NCBI GenBank assembly: GCA_019057735.1
Contig: JAHLWV010000156.1
Location: 1 to 5,737, forward strand
Direction: 5' to 3'
Length of the DNA stretch: 5,737 bases
DNA from: Promethearchaeota archaeon
Lineage (GTDB): Archaea; Asgardarchaeota; Lokiarchaeia; Sigynarchaeales; SOKP01
Both the position numbers and the translations under genes were made by a program. This document shows, one piece after another, positions 488 through 5,499 of the stretch. The notes under the pieces were generated by a model. That model was not told the origin of the DNA, did no database searches, and saw only the letters and a program-made list of their open reading frames with translations. Position 1 is the stretch's first letter; the number at the start of each line of letters is the position of its first letter.

Positions 488-1084
488 TTATTCTATTGAT
501 GCGTGACGCTTATCAATGTCGTTTTCGGTTATTTCTAATAGAACCATTAACGAGGCTCCAATTGAATCTAATATGGAAAGCGTAGAAATATCGAACAAAG
601 AGGTAAACGGAGCTAAAGAATCTTGTGAAATCGCTTTCTCTTTACTTTTACCCTCAACTTTAATGACCAAGTCAGATAACGTTGCGATCGTACTTTTAAG
701 ATTCCCTGTAAATAAAGCAATTTTTCCTCCAATTACTTTTGCTTCTTCGGCTATAGCTTTAGGTGAAGTTGTTTCACCGCTTCCGCTTACCAAAATCAAA
801 AGATCCTCTTTACTGTAGCGATATGTAACTGCATCGGAAACAAAACAAGATTTAATACCTAAATGCATTAATCTTTGAGCAAAACATCGTCCAATAAATC
901 CAGATCTACCAGCGCCATATATAAAAATCCTTCCATCTTTTGAATCAATTTCGATAATCAACTCAATTAGCTTTAAGATTTGATCCGTATCAATAGAGTC
1001 AGAATTTTTTTTTACTTGATCTGCGATTTCTAAAAGAGTATTTAGAAACCTTTCCCGTAGTAGTTTTGAATTAGAATTATTCAT
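488..1084 (-). CDS. hxlB: 6-phospho-3-hexuloisomerase-like SIS-domain protein (divergent)
   Basis: A 198-residue SIS-domain protein of usual PHI length. PHI interconverts 3-hexulose-6-phosphate and fructose-6-phosphate in the ribulose monophosphate pathway; many archaea are thought to use that pathway in reverse to make ribulose-5-phosphate. Intact family features are a leading helical segment (about 5-47), GAGRSGFIGRCFAQRLMHLG at 57-76, SGSGET at 100-105 and the C-terminal KRHASIE at 192-198. Two other signatures differ. The usual GE..TP after the first SIS block reads SDAVTY at 83-88, and the usual P.G[ST].FE reads PFTSLFD at 159-165, so two normally conserved glutamates appear as aspartates. 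The start is ATG 1082-1084, which overlaps the upstream stop as ATGA and has GAGGAG 8 nt upstream. A longer frame from 1132 would overlap the neighbour by 52 nt. No hexulose-phosphate synthase gene is in the window. SIS fold certain; exact substrate less so. Confidence 0.85.
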   Translation of the reverse strand: MNNSNSKLLRERFLNTLLEIADQVKKNSDSIDTDQILKLIELIIEIDSKDGRIFIYGAGRSGFIGRCFAQRLMHLGIKSCFVSDAVTYRYSKEDLLILVSGSGETTSPKAIAEEAKVIGGKIALFTGNLKSTIATLSDLVIKVEGKSKEKAISQDSLAPFTSLFDISTLSILDSIGASLMVLLEITENDIDKRHASIE

Positions 1085-2373
1085 TTCTGTCTCTCCTCTT
1101 TTGATAATTCGGGATGGACACAACTTCTCCACTGATCTACGGTTTCTTTAGGACCTAAACCAATCAAGAGGTCCCCAACTTCAAAAATAAAATCTGATTT
1201 AAAGCTGTAAATCCATTTATTTTCTCTTTTTAAGGCTATGATGTGAAACCCTCGTTTATATTTTTGATTTTGTAATTGATTATACGTTTTATCTTTAAAA
1301 TAAGAATCTGCTGAAATTGTTTCTCGGACGACTATTTCTGAAGTTTCTTCTATGGCTTTTTGAAGAATAACATGAGGTTCAAAACCTTCTAAAATATTTT
1401 CGGCTAAATGTGCCGCTGCATCTGCTATTAATTCGCATGAAAATACTATACGCATGATCCCTGTTAATATTTTTGGATTATCAAGTAATTGTGTTAAATC
1501 TAAAAGATCCTTTTCGAAATTTATATTCAATCCATCCATTAAAGATTCCATCTCTAATACATCTTCAGCTACATCGTAACTGTTAAAGAACAACGATGCT
1601 AAGGCTAATTCTATCATTGTCTCAGAAATATCAGTTATTAACACATAATCCCTTTTCAGTTCTTTAATTTCTTCATAAAATTCAGGGTTTTTTAGATCAT
1701 AATCCGATTCTTCTTTTACTTCACCGATGTGAAAAGAAAAATCTTCAGAGTCATATGTTAACTTCTTTAACTCTTTAATTGGTTCAATTTCTCCTTTAAT
1801 TATCAGTATATCCCCCGTTTTAATTTCATTATCTCTTTCAAATAACCAATCGTCCTTTCTTTTTATTGCAATTAAGTCTACTCCGTACTTAGACCGAAAA
1901 TGTACTTCTTTGCGATTCATTCCTATAAATTCACAATCATCATTGACGGTGATTTTCACAATGGGTTCAGGGACTTCGTCCCAAAATAGTTGCGTGAAAT
2001 CGGATATATCGCTATTTATATATACAACTCGAGCGATATCTGCAAGAGCATCAGAGATTTTGTCAATTGAATAGCCCATTACAACAATAGGTTCTAAAGC
2101 TTTTGCTTCTTTAAAACCACCAGTTTGAGTTTGAATAATTTGCAAATTCAATAGAAATGTTAATTCATGGATTCTCTTTTCAATTTTAGACGTCTCGTCT
2201 GCAATTTCCTTACTACTAAATTTTATAGCGCTGTAAGCAAGATCAATCATCAAGTCGATCTTCTGTTTCATCTCTTTTAAAATGTCCTTTAGTGATATAG
2301 GTTGGTACTGAAATTTCTTTCTTTTTTCATGCTTTTTAATTATTTTCTCACTCTCGTTTAGATAATTACGCAA
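1081..2373 (-). CDS. PhoU-TrkA_C-PhoU-TrkA_C regulatory protein of the MgtE-like permease
   Basis: A 430-residue soluble protein built as an internal duplication. PhoU-like helices (about 27-120, with LMIDLAYSAI at 41-50) are followed by a TrkA_C/RCK_C module (about 136-205: GVDLIAIKR, then TGDILIIKG). A second PhoU-like bundle (about 236-335, with ETMIELALASLFF) leads into a second TrkA_C module (about 345-415: GFHIIALKR, then VGDLLIGLG). This matches the archaeal group described as containing PhoU and TrkA_C domains (COG3273, from memory), often adjacent to the permease family seen here. TrkA_C domains bind small ligands; some bacterial ones bind c-di-AMP, so a cytosolic sensor or gate for the transporter is a reasonable inference. 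The start is TTG 2371-2373, overlapping the permease B stop by 8 nt without a clear Shine-Dalgarno site. The next in-frame ATG (residue 35) would cut into the first PhoU helix. Residues 7-20 are very basic. Confidence 0.87.
   Translation of the reverse strand: MRNYLNESEKIIKKHEKRKKFQYQPISLKDILKEMKQKIDLMIDLAYSAIKFSSKEIADETSKIEKRIHELTFLLNLQIIQTQTGGFKEAKALEPIVVMGYSIDKISDALADIARVVYINSDISDFTQLFWDEVPEPIVKITVNDDCEFIGMNRKEVHFRSKYGVDLIAIKRKDDWLFERDNEIKTGDILIIKGEIEPIKELKKLTYDSEDFSFHIGEVKEESDYDLKNPEFYEEIKELKRDYVLITDISETMIELALASLFFNSYDVAEDVLEMESLMDGLNINFEKDLLDLTQLLDNPKILTGIMRIVFSCELIADAAAHLAENILEGFEPHVILQKAIEETSEIVVRETISADSYFKDKTYNQLQNQKYKRGFHIIALKRENKWIYSFKSDFIFEVGDLLIGLGPKETVDQWRSCVHPELSKEERQK
1093..1098 (-). 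promoter_or_regulatory. Shine-Dalgarno site that fixes the hxlB-like start
   Basis: GAGGAG on the minus strand lies 8 nt before ATG 1082-1084, inside the end of the upstream PhoU/TrkA_C gene. It is the best ribosome binding site in the window and supports the inner Met over the start at 1132. With the ATGA stop/start overlap it indicates translational coupling. Confidence 0.85.
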
Positions 2374-2917
2374 ATATTTGGATAAAGGTTATTATAAATA
2401 AGGGGGTTAAGAAATCCGCTAACGATGTCACCATTGGAATTAAGAAATTATTTGGGTCTTTTCCTTTTCTAAATATTAATATGGAACCCATAAATAAAAA
2501 TACGAACATTAGTCCAAATAGAATTAAAATAGTAATAATAAAAATTGATATAATCAACAAGGGATTAACGATTTGTATTCCAGTTACACTTCCCAATATG
2601 TATCCTAGGCTTATCAACGCAGCAAGGCTTAATAAAATTGTTATAAACAACCCATAAAAGTCCTGTTTTAATCGATCAGAGACTTGAATTTTTGGAGACA
2701 ACGTACCTATATACAGGTGAGAGGTTAGACGAGATACCAGAACAGTTGATATATCCCCTATTAAAGAATTCAAGGACGGTAGAACTAATAAAATAATAGG
2801 AAAACTAGACAATACTCTTTCGTTACTAGATAGAAGCGTCCCGGAAAAGAGTCCCATAACAGAACTAATTAGAACTACTATTACTGATTCCTTAAAGATT
2901 TTTTTGAAGTAATCCAC
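2366..2917 (-). CDS. MgtE/SLC41-like divalent cation permease, half B
   Basis: A 183-residue membrane protein corresponding to one MgtE integral-membrane domain, without the cytosolic N and CBS domains of bacterial MgtE. About five hydrophobic segments are visible (roughly 11-30, 38-55, 87-110, 116-146 and 165-182). Family marks are PSLNSLIGDISTVLVSRL at 47-64, the cytosolic loop G71TLSP, and KGKDPNNFLIPMVTSLADFL at 151-170. Asp168 corresponds to the region of the pore aspartate that coordinates Mg2+ in bacterial MgtE (my alignment by eye). The start is GTG 2915-2917, 2 nt after the TAA of half A, with GGGGTG 8 nt upstream. It probably pairs with half A, as the two repeats of an SLC41 protein do. 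The transported ion (Mg2+, or another divalent metal) cannot be told from sequence. Confidence 0.86.
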   Translation of the reverse strand: MDYFKKIFKESVIVVLISSVMGLFSGTLLSSNERVLSSFPIILLVLPSLNSLIGDISTVLVSRLTSHLYIGTLSPKIQVSDRLKQDFYGLFITILLSLAALISLGYILGSVTGIQIVNPLLIISIFIITILILFGLMFVFLFMGSILIFRKGKDPNNFLIPMVTSLADFLTPLFIITFIQIFA

Positions 2918-2919
2918 TA

Positions 2920-3474
2920 TTATGGCACCCCAAACATAATAATTGTTAAGTAGAAGCAGATAACTGTAAAAAAATCGTCAATCGCTGTCATTACAGGATT
3001 TACAATATTATTTGGATCGAGCCCCCGCTTAAATGCTAAAAAATTTAAAAACGTCGAACAAGGAATTGAAATCGTTAAAGTCAACGCAATTGAAACAACT
3101 GGAATTATGATTAACAAACCAATATGGAAAATATAGAGTTTTATTAATAAGAAATTAATGAGGATGCTGAAAACTCCAATTGCTAATGCTGTTAATAACG
3201 ATAAAGATAATGTAGCTAATACATTTTCAAACCATGATTTCTTATTAAATTCGCCGATAATGAAGTCTCTTGAAGTCCGAGCGATAAACGGCCCACTTAA
3301 ATTACCCCTAAGAGAAAGTAAAGCAGGTATAATTAGAATTAATAAAAGAAAGCTCTTAAATGAAACTACTAAAAGGGAGAGTACGATTCCCGCAAGAATA
3401 TCGCCCACAATGGAAACCATTTCCGATGGAAATGTTTCTTTAACGATTTTGCCTTTAGTATCTCGAGCTTCCAT
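2920..3474 (-). CDS. MgtE/SLC41-like divalent cation permease, half A
   Basis: A 184-residue membrane protein and the first clear gene of the cluster. It has about five hydrophobic segments (roughly 19-38, 41-56, 85-112, 115-140 and 164-182). Family motifs are PALLSLRGNLSGPFIAR at 50-66, the loop containing GEF at 74-76, and RGLDPNNIVNPVMTAIDDFF at 150-169; Asp166/Asp167 occupy the pore-aspartate position. It resembles half B in length and motif order but differs widely in sequence, fitting an old duplication and a heteromeric transporter. The start used is ATG 3472-3474, which is preceded by CAT and five in-frame TGA codons and has no clear Shine-Dalgarno site. The promoter instead points to an ATG at 3519-3521 in another frame, so the N-terminus is uncertain. 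The membrane part is secure from about residue 10. Confidence 0.85.
   Translation of the reverse strand: MEARDTKGKIVKETFPSEMVSIVGDILAGIVLSLLVVSFKSFLLLILIIPALLSLRGNLSGPFIARTSRDFIIGEFNKKSWFENVLATLSLSLLTALAIGVFSILINFLLIKLYIFHIGLLIIIPVVSIALTLTISIPCSTFLNFLAFKRGLDPNNIVNPVMTAIDDFFTVICFYLTIIMFGVP
2926..2931 (-). promoter_or_regulatory. Shine-Dalgarno site for permease half B
   Basis: GGGGTG on the minus strand lies 8 nt before GTG 2915-2917 and within the last codons of half A. It agrees with the GAGGTG core at five of six positions and supports the GTG start and coupled translation of the two halves. Confidence 0.6.
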
Positions 3475-3521
3475 ATGTCATCATCATCATCAGATAAACT
3501 ATTCGTTAATTTTTCATTCAT
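3369..3521 (-). other. Candidate upstream reading frame overlapping permease A
   Basis: From ATG 3519-3521, fifty codons run to TAG 3369-3371. The first fifteen residues, MNEKLTNSLSDDDDD, lie ahead of permease A; the rest overlaps it in another frame and looks non-natural. The ATG lies about 33 nt downstream of the best TATA box, as expected for a short-leader archaeal mRNA. It could be a regulatory leader frame. Alternatively it is the true permease A N-terminus, separated by a frameshift: dropping one AT from the ATAT at 3473-3476 would join the Asp run to MEARDTK. Either reading is speculative. Confidence 0.3.
3478..3492. repeat. (TCA)5 trinucleotide tract before the permease A start
   Basis: Five perfect TCA units, TGA on the coding strand, end 3 nt before ATG 3472-3474. 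In the permease A frame they read as five consecutive stop codons. In the frame starting at 3521 the same bases fall within the run of Asp codons. Unit-number changes would keep the frame but alter the distance between promoter and start. Confidence 0.9.
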
Positions 3522-3556
3522 TCTCTTAATAATTTATTAAGACTCGAATTTATTTA
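3506..3556 (-). repeat. Promoter/start element, copy 1
   Basis: Read on the minus strand, this 51-bp stretch matches 5324-5374 on the plus strand at 45 of 51 positions without gaps, counted by eye. The first 15 bases (TAAATAAATTCGAGT) are identical. It covers most of the TATA box, the palindrome, the ATG at 3519-3521 and the following 13 nt. The CTCGA core makes chance A/T similarity unlikely. Confidence 0.8.
3524..3542. promoter_or_regulatory. 19-bp palindrome over the predicted transcription start, possible operator
   Basis: TCTTAATAATTTATTAAGA has perfect 9-bp arms around a single central base (3533). It lies between the TATA box and ATG 3519-3521, covering the predicted transcription start, where a dimeric repressor would act. 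The related element at 5340-5358 keeps seven of nine arm pairings. The A/T content raises the chance of a random dyad, so the call rests mainly on position and on the second copy. Confidence 0.4.
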
Positions 3557-3558
3557 AA
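3551..3558 (-). promoter_or_regulatory. TATA box of the permease-PhoU-hxlB-SET cluster
   Basis: TTTAAATA on the minus strand fits an archaeal TATA box. Its centre is 33 nt before ATG 3519-3521, placing transcription start near 3529 and a leader of about 8 nt to that ATG, or about 55 nt to the permease A ATG. Bases 3551-3556 lie within the repeated element shared with 5324-5374. A second TATA-like stretch (CTTATATTAA, around 3582-3591) lies further upstream and is less well placed. Confidence 0.5.
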
Positions 3559-5266: not shown

Positions 5267-5320
5267 TATCGAGTTCATATTTTTATTTTTAAGTAAATAG
5301 AAAGATAGAAATTGTAAGTG

Positions 5321-5329
5321 TTATAAATA
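5321..5329 (+). promoter_or_regulatory. TATA box within the second promoter/start element
   Basis: TTATAAATA is the best TATA match in the window. Its centre lies about 33 nt before ATG 5359-5361, the same geometry as at 3551-3558. It would drive a rightward transcript beginning near 5351, about 175 nt before the exported-protein gene, so it may give that gene a long leader or serve a short RNA. Confidence 0.45.
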
Positions 5330-5374
5330 AATTCGAGTTTTATTAAATTAGTAAGAGTATGAACGAAAATTTAA
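5324..5374 (+). repeat. Promoter/start element, copy 2
   Basis: It matches 3556-3506 of the minus strand at 45 of 51 positions with no gap. Here the ATG at 5359-5361 opens only nine codons (MNENLIIKI) before TGA 5386-5388, whereas copy 1 opens with MNEKLTN. The dyad between TATA box and ATG is weaker, with 7 of 9 arm pairs kept. No gene follows directly, so this is either a regulatory module or the remnant of a duplicated gene start. Confidence 0.8.
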
Positions 5375-5425
5375 TAATAAAAATATGATTTCTATTATAC
5401 TCTTATACAATCAACATCCAAATCG

Positions 5426-5462
5426 TTTATGTTAGTAATAAAAGAGAAGTAACTAACATAAA
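5426..5462. repeat. Inverted repeat with 11-bp perfect arms
   Basis: TTTATGTTAGT (5426-5436) and ACTAACATAAA (5452-5462) are exact reverse complements around a 15-nt spacer. The right arm ends about 30 bp upstream of the TATA candidate for the exported-protein gene and 64 bp before its ATG. It could be a paired operator, or a hairpin in a transcript started from the promoter at 5321. Confidence 0.65.
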
Positions 5463-5491
5463 ATAAATAAAGAAAGTCTTGTTAAAAATAA

Positions 5492-5499
5492 TTTAATAA
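5492..5499 (+). promoter_or_regulatory. Possible TATA box of the exported-protein gene
   Basis: TTTAATAA, preceded by the A-rich GTTAAAAATA, is centred about 32 nt before ATG 5527-5529 and so predicts a leader of about 7 nt. The spacing agrees with the other promoter candidates; the sequence itself is only moderately TATA-like in an A/T-rich background. Confidence 0.35.

What the first reader, a model, noticed from the sequence alone, without database searches (positions are those of the whole stretch)
3506..3556. A 51-bp promoter-plus-start element occurs twice, in two intergenic regions
Minus strand 3556-3506 and plus strand 5324-5374 agree at 45 of 51 positions without gaps, including an identical 15-mer with a CTCGA core. 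The match spans most of the TATA box, the dyad, the ATG and the first codons (ATGAAYGAAAA). Ordinary core promoters do not share this much. One copy drives the permease cluster; the other opens a nine-codon frame ahead of an exported-protein gene. This could be a coregulated promoter module or a relic of a duplicated permease gene start.
Basis: seen in the sequence. Interest (0 to 1): 0.72.

Follow-up and report, generated by a model that had tools for sequence, protein, structure and literature searches.

The report
Archaeal magnesium-transporter leader, copied once nearby
The repeated 51-base stretch is the promoter and first codons of a short reading frame that overlaps the start of a magnesium transporter gene in Lokiarchaeota, where it is conserved and often rich in acidic amino acids, so it may sense magnesium; the second copy is a local duplicate that looks like a relic.

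Summary
The 51-bp match is real (45/51), but it is neither a regulon box nor mgtE's own start. Copy 1 (3556-3506, -) is the TATA box and start of a leader reading frame (ATG 3521) that crosses the mgtE start (ATG 3474) out of frame and ends about 100 nt inside mgtE. In 56 of 57 mgtE upstream regions from Lokiarchaeota an ATG opens this same relative frame 14-50 nt before the mgtE ATG; shuffles give 17%, other genes nearby 5 of 178. Counted without regard to frame, the most distal ATG within 56 nt is in that frame and open in 54 of 57. In 39 of 47 longer leaders at least three of the last six codons before the mgtE ATG are acidic (DDDDD, DSDEDG). Acidic leader ORFs that abort translation serve Mg2+ transporters in Salmonella and E. 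coli (mgtQ, mgtL). I propose the same logic here, by an overlapping frame in an archaeon; that mechanism is inferred. Copy 2 (5324-5374) duplicates such an mgtE start where relatives have a phosphoribosyltransferase start; one further example turned up in 65 genomes. It shows no sign of selection.

The parts
3551..3558 (-). TATA-like box (TTTAAATA) of the mgtE transcription unit, 37 nt before the leader ATG
   Evidence: sequence; a crude score puts the best TATA-like octamer 37 nt before the leader ATG in 24 of 53 scored regions, scattered from 31 to 60 nt in the rest
3506..3556 (-). Copy 1 of the 51-bp element: TATA box, start region, leader ATG and first five codons
3369..3521 (-). Leader ORF, 50 codons, MNEKLTNSLSDDDDDIWKLEILK..., out of frame with mgtE and overlapping its first ~105 nt
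3477..3491 (-). Acidic run DDDDD of the leader ORF, ending 2 nt before the mgtE ATG
2920..3474 (-). mgtE, first half-transporter (MEARDTKGKIVKE...), PF01769
   Evidence: Pfam 1.9e-17; MgtE of known structure E 2.5e-4
2366..2917 (-). mgtE, second half-transporter, PF01769
   Evidence: Pfam 3.5e-10
1081..2373 (-). TrkA_C + PhoU domain protein, next gene of the cluster
5322..5329 (+). TATA-like box (TATAAATA) of copy 2
   Evidence: sequence
5324..5374 (+). Copy 2 of the 51-bp element, a duplicate of an mgtE promoter and leader start
5359..5388 (+). Truncated leader copy, MNENLIIKI*, without the acidic run
   Evidence: sequence; MNESLTIKI* in L105 (read from the alignment)
5335..5464 (+). Segment that replaces the start of a phosphoribosyltransferase gene present in relatives; homology to L001, L004 and L008 breaks at 5334 and resumes near 5464 with L008
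5527..5737 (+). Start of an exported calcineurin-like phosphoesterase gene, with its own TATA-like box TTTAATAA at 5492-5499, 35 nt before its ATG
   Evidence: full-length homologue in L116, PF00149 1.7e-12

Best explanation
Copy 1 is the promoter and start of a leaderless mgtE transcript. Ribosomes first meet ATG 3521 at the 5' end and translate a leader frame that crosses the mgtE start codon out of frame and stops about 100 nt inside mgtE, so full leader translation should block mgtE. The acidic codons sit immediately before the mgtE ATG. I propose that at low Mg2+ the ribosome becomes unstable while making the acidic stretch, drops off at that place, and initiation at the adjacent ATG 3474 follows; at high Mg2+ the leader is read through and mgtE stays low. 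Shown from sequence: the leader frame, its conservation, the acidic run. Inferred: TATA box and transcription start, translation, Mg2+ response, drop-off. Copy 2 is a duplicate of such an mgtE start, joined next to the phosphoesterase gene in a rearranging flank, and is probably a relic.
For: 56 of 57 upstream regions (window plus 57 loci, L082 dropped because its contig ends 9 nt upstream) have an ATG 14-50 nt before the mgtE ATG that opens the same relative frame through the mgtE start; shuffles give 17%. Frame-blind count: of 75 ATGs 17-56 nt upstream, 63 are in this frame and all 63 are open; the most distal ATG is of this kind in 54 of 57 regions. Control: 5 of 178 other ORFs, none at 38 nt or more, against 20 of 20 mgtE. 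On the MgtE tree the leader length changes 8 times with the frame kept. 39 of 47 leaders of 41-50 nt have at least three acidic residues in the last six codons; 31 of 38 distinct ones have at least three in the last eight. In those 39 rows the three core acidic codons changed once, twice and nine times at codon positions 1, 2 and 3 (rows were chosen for acidity, which favours this). The mgtE ATG is kept at the junction, which speaks for initiation there and not for frameshifting. Acidic leader ORFs of Mg2+ transporters are known in enterobacteria; acid-run abortion eased by Mg2+ occurs in E. coli and in eukaryotic systems. Copy 2.
Against: No expression data. The 9 shortest leaders (14-26 nt) have no acidic run and 8 of the 47 longer ones have fewer than three acidic residues in the last six codons. 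L070 has no leader. Over the whole leader 19 sister pairs show 14 synonymous against 93 non-synonymous codon differences, so most of the peptide is not conserved. In sister genera GAGG within the acid codons could simply be a ribosome-binding site for mgtE. I defined the leader by its frame, so 'all lengths 2 mod 3' is no evidence by itself; and the 44/47 step is a GAT repeat, where 3-nt steps come for free. In the other shifted frame 11 of 57 regions have an open ATG at 14 nt or more (most at 16 nt, made by the GAT codons), 2 of 57 at 20 nt or more. Drop-off with local re-initiation was not shown for archaea in anything I read. Copy 2 keeps its TATA box and mini-ORF in two lineages, so some use cannot be excluded.
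Confidence: 0.5

Rival explanations
1. The leader frame is real and represses or couples mgtE translation, but does not sense Mg2+: it is a constitutive or differently triggered overlapping uORF, and the acid codons serve as a ribosome-binding stretch for mgtE.
For: The frame also holds in leaders without acid (IGVKKW, TGANIW, SKYQWCVEC). GAG GAT contains GAGG at Shine-Dalgarno distance in many sister genera.
Against: The window's own genus has GAT/GAC runs without a Shine-Dalgarno, and third-position changes keep the acid. The gene is a Mg2+ transporter, the known client of acidic leaders.
Confidence: 0.35
2. The 51-bp element is a transcription-factor module shared by a regulon.
For: The two copies share the TATA box and flanks.
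Against: In 65 family genomes the nine best matches are eight mgtE starts and one orthologous copy 2; the tenth lies inside a coding frame. Weaker short matches were not examined. The motif near the mgtE start of sister genera is at mgtE in 18 of 19 places. Between window and L105, copy 2 (41/51) is less conserved than its flanks (69/74 and 243/273).
Confidence: 0.05
3. Copy 2 is functional: it gives the phosphoesterase gene an mgtE-like, Mg2+-responsive promoter with a short leader.
For: TATA box, ATG and nine-codon frame survive in two lineages about 88% alike.
Against: The copy lacks the acidic run, its interval diverges faster than its flanks, and the phosphoesterase has its own TATA-like box 35 nt before its ATG.
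Confidence: 0.12
4. The leader is a structured RNA switch such as an M-box.
For: M-box riboswitches (recalled) control mgtE genes in bacteria. 6 of 47 leaders fold with a z-score below -2.
Against: No Rfam match in the window and only a large-subunit rRNA in five relatives; mean folding z-score -0.5 over 47 leaders; 0 of 27 consensus pairs covary in 11 sequences (they are too alike for a strong test).
Confidence: 0.05

Closest known systems
mgtQ of Salmonella (8-codon ORF before the mgtB Mg2+ transporter gene; PMC8092293, outline and passages read)
   Same: Short ORF directly serving a Mg2+ transporter gene; acidic codons destabilise the ribosome and raise transporter translation.
   Different: mgtQ works through alternative stem-loops in the mgtC-mgtB intergenic region; here the frame crosses the transporter start, no stem-loop is supported, the organism is an archaeon and the transporter is MgtE.
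mgtL (and corL) leader ORFs of E. coli and Salmonella (PMC11552253, passages read)
   Same: Leader ORF in the 5' region of a Mg2+ transporter mRNA; proline or acidic codons make mgtL elongation inefficient at low Mg2+.
   Different: Output there is Rho-dependent transcription termination; here overlap with the start codon suggests translational control.
Intrinsic ribosome destabilisation by Asp/Glu runs near the N terminus (PMC9718836, abstract and passages read)
   Same: Acid-rich stretch within the first ~16 codons; the effect is eased by Mg2+ in bacterial and eukaryotic systems.
   Different: The two places in that paper that mention archaea do not test it there.
Overlapping uORFs of eukaryotic mRNAs (recalled)
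   Same: An out-of-frame uORF that crosses the main start codon and is expected to repress it.
   Different: The eukaryotic case depends on scanning from a cap.

Membership tests
Mg2+-sensing leader ORF (mgtL/mgtQ type) | Short ORF upstream of, and serving, a Mg2+ transporter gene | tested here: met
   Leader ORF in 56 of 57 mgtE upstream regions; MgtE by Pfam and PDB sequence match. That it serves mgtE is inferred from the frame conservation.
Mg2+-sensing leader ORF (mgtL/mgtQ type) | Acidic (or proline) codons that impede elongation | tested here: inconclusive
   Acidic codons present in 39 of 47 leaders of 41-50 nt, not in the 9 shortest and few in 8 longer ones; that they impede elongation here was not tested
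Mg2+-sensing leader ORF (mgtL/mgtQ type) | Alternative RNA stem-loops that hide or free the transporter start, or Rho sites | tested here: inconclusive
   No supported fold, but the sequences are too alike for a strong test; Rho sites not tested
Mg2+-sensing leader ORF (mgtL/mgtQ type) | Leader is translated and the transporter responds to Mg2+ through it | not testable with these tools
   no expression data
Regulon promoter module | Same element before several different genes | tested here: not met
   Long matches only at mgtE starts and in the copy 2 lineage; weak short matches not examined; own genome not held
Duplicated gene start (relic) | Second copy homologous to promoter and first codons, absent from the same place in relatives | tested here: met
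   L001, L004 and L008 have a phosphoribosyltransferase start or its remnant there; copy 2 matches mgtE starts of L041 and L042 at 53 and 52 of 60
M-box riboswitch | Rfam covariance model match | tested here: not met

The most novel reading that the evidence does not exclude
Lokiarchaeota control their MgtE magnesium transporter with a leaderless, overlapping leader frame whose acidic codons make the ribosome itself the Mg2+ sensor, with drop-off placed exactly on the transporter's start codon. It would be an archaeal, eukaryote-like overlapping uORF with the logic of enterobacterial mgtQ/mgtL, evolved independently.
Probability: 0.35. Interest if true: 0.82.

Novelty: new variant of a known kind. 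Interest (0 to 1): 0.62.

Why it matters
If true, ribosome-based Mg2+ sensing by acidic leader peptides would reach beyond enterobacteria to archaea, and to the archaeal group usually placed nearest to eukaryotes, in the form of an overlapping uORF. Even without the mechanism, a frame-conserved leader ORF before one gene in 56 of 57 regions is a strong, testable sign of translational control in organisms where, as far as I recall, little such control is known. It also warns that the first ATG after this promoter is not the start of the transporter.

Tried and rejected
Regulon reading: searched the copy 2 region (5320-5470) in 65 family genomes (13 candidates scored per genome; apart from the ten best, the listed matches are short, about 20-71 bp, at E 6e-5 to 0.01 and were not examined) and the sister-genus motif with up to 2 mismatches (19 places in 18 of 65 genomes; by coordinates 18 lie at mgtE starts, the second place in G030, on another contig, was not examined). 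Not supported.

A 54-bp match in G036 (L113) looked like a third copy; it lies inside a coding frame. Taken as chance.

Programmed frameshift that would fuse the leader to MgtE: rejected because the mgtE ATG is conserved at the junction, the mgtE frame has stops directly upstream of it in the window's genus, and no slippery heptamer is visible (by eye).

Structured RNA: no Rfam match for the leader, mean z -0.5 (6 of 47 below -2), no covariation. Purifying selection on the whole leader peptide: not found.

More distant mgtE upstream regions, read by eye: G072 (L117), outside the family, has the leader (47 nt, ending NDDKIW); L118-L122 and L125-L132, 13 regions, show none that I could recognise. 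In one search, 76 of 227 phylum genomes had a match at E 1e-12; of the 18 outside the family I fetched 12, plus two weaker ones.

Literature: in the rows listed by searches (listings of 15, 15, 12, 6, 15 and 3 rows) I saw no paper on an archaeal Mg2+-transporter leader ORF; most subscription journals are not held.

Full report
What was checked. The two stretches agree at 45 of 51 positions and score 33 against a maximum of 16 in 150 shuffled pairs; identity drops sharply on both sides. The window belongs to a lokiarchaeon: among the best hits of its TrkA_C/PhoU protein the named ones near the top are mostly Lokiarchaeota, and one contig of a Lokiarchaeota MAG (L001) is 96% identical over most of the window. 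No genome of the window's own strain is held, so copies elsewhere in that genome cannot be counted.

Copy 1 in relatives. In 12 of 21 related loci a match of at least 33 of 51 to either copy exists, one each, directly before mgtE. Of the other 9, at least two (L003, L011) do not reach that place. The alignment shows the TATA box, the ATG and the stretch up to the next ATG kept. Reading all three frames showed that the mgtE frame opens only at MEARD (3474) and has stops directly before it, while the ATG in the element opens another frame, MNE(N/K)L...SSDDDDDIWKLEILK..., that runs through the mgtE start and stops near codon 50.

Breadth. MgtE was found in 60 of 65 held genomes of the family, in three of them without a usable start. 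I took upstream regions for the other 57. With the window and without L082 (contig end), 57 regions were scored: 56 have an ATG open through the mgtE start in the same relative frame, at 50 (30 cases), 47 (13), 44 (1), 41 (3), 26 (4), 23 (1), 17 (3) and 14 nt (1); shuffled upstream sequence would give 17%. In the other shifted frame 11 of 57 have one at 14 nt or more, 9 of these at 16 nt and made by the GAT codons; 2 of 57 at 20 nt or more; shuffles give 15%. Since the leader was defined by its frame, I also counted blind to frame: 75 ATGs lie 17-56 nt upstream, 63 in this frame and all 63 open, 12 in the other shifted frame with 2 open; the most distal ATG is in this frame and open in 54 of 57 regions. 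In the fetched loci, 178 other ORFs of at least 150 codons gave 5 (none at 38 nt or more), against 20 of 20 mgtE. On an MgtE tree the leader length changes 8 times with the frame kept. The exception, L070, has an unrelated upstream region. One genome outside the family (G072, L117) has the same layout at 47 nt; 13 more distant regions show none that I could recognise.

The acidic run. Of the 47 leaders of 41-50 nt, 39 have at least three Asp/Glu in the last six codons before the mgtE ATG: DDDDD in the window's genus, DSDEDG or ESDEDG in sister genera. Exchanges GAT/GAC/GAG/GAA keep the acid. In those 39 rows the three core codons changed once, twice and nine times at codon positions 1, 2 and 3 on the tree; the rows were chosen for acidity, which favours that result. 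The 18 front columns changed 158 times, the 18 end columns 51 times. Over the whole leader 19 sister pairs show 14 synonymous and 93 non-synonymous codon differences. The 9 shortest leaders have no such run and 8 of the longer ones have fewer than three acidic residues there. RNA structure has no clear support.

How it may work. A crude score puts the best TATA-like octamer 37 nt before the leader ATG in 24 of 53 scored regions, and scattered from 31 to 60 nt in the others; a transcript start at the ATG (leaderless) is inferred. A review finds Shine-Dalgarno sequences not prevalent in a lokiarchaeon (PMC7531240, section 5 read). If ribosomes start at the leader ATG, read-through should keep mgtE low. 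Acid runs near the N terminus abort translation, less so at high Mg2+, in E. coli and in yeast and human factor systems (PMC9718836, abstract and passages). In Salmonella, acidic codons of the 8-codon mgtQ are needed for translation of the Mg2+ transporter MgtB (PMC8092293, outline and passages), and mgtL works through inefficient elongation at low Mg2+ (PMC11552253, passages). Here the drop-off point would lie right at the transporter's start codon. This step is inference.

Copy 2. In L001 the HEAT-repeat gene is followed, divergently, by an intact phosphoribosyltransferase gene. In L004 its first codons are fused to the phosphoesterase gene, and in L008 about 40 codons of it remain before that gene, next to a HEAT-gene fragment and a further full phosphoribosyltransferase and HEAT pair. 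In the window and in L105/L116 (G027 contig C140) the same place holds copy 2, then about 90 bp of unknown origin, then the phosphoesterase gene. Copy 2 is nearer to the mgtE starts of L041, L042 and L044 (53, 52 and 52 of 60) than to the window's own (49 of 60), so it predates the recent change of copy 1 or came from a relative. Between window and L105, copy 2 agrees at 41 of 51, its flanks at 69 of 74 and 243 of 273: no sign of selection on it. The phosphoesterase has a TATA-like box of its own.

Verdict. The repeat itself is a local duplicate. The part of interest is the overlapping leader frame of mgtE: its existence as a conserved element I hold at about 0.9, Mg2+ sensing by the acidic run at about 0.35-0.4.

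Noticed in passing
window 5375-5464; L105 minus strand, about 1596-1507: About 90 bp after copy 2 gave no match in the fetched loci except the L105/L116 contig; they hold a second short frame whose ATG overlaps the stop of the nine-codon frame (ATGA) in both lineages.
   Followed up: partly
L001 2230-4644: An 804-codon exported or membrane protein gene stands between the HEAT gene and mgtE in L001 (its start is also seen in L099), absent at this place from the window and L004.
   Followed up: no
L116 (G027 contig C140): This contig is about 87% identical to the window although the same genome bin carries an MgtE only 69% identical to the window's; the contig may be misbinned or transferred.
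   Followed up: no
L102 2027-3442: About the first 11 codons of a phosphoribosyltransferase gene are fused in frame to an exported phosphoesterase gene.
   Followed up: partly
G030, contigs C17 and C132: The mgtE-start motif occurs on two contigs of this bin, a possible second mgtE or mixed bin.
   Followed up: no
window 3474-3451 and relatives: The first codons of mgtE (GAA GCT CGA GAT) vary little even at third positions in 11 sequences, as expected if both frames or the initiation site constrain them.
   Followed up: partly
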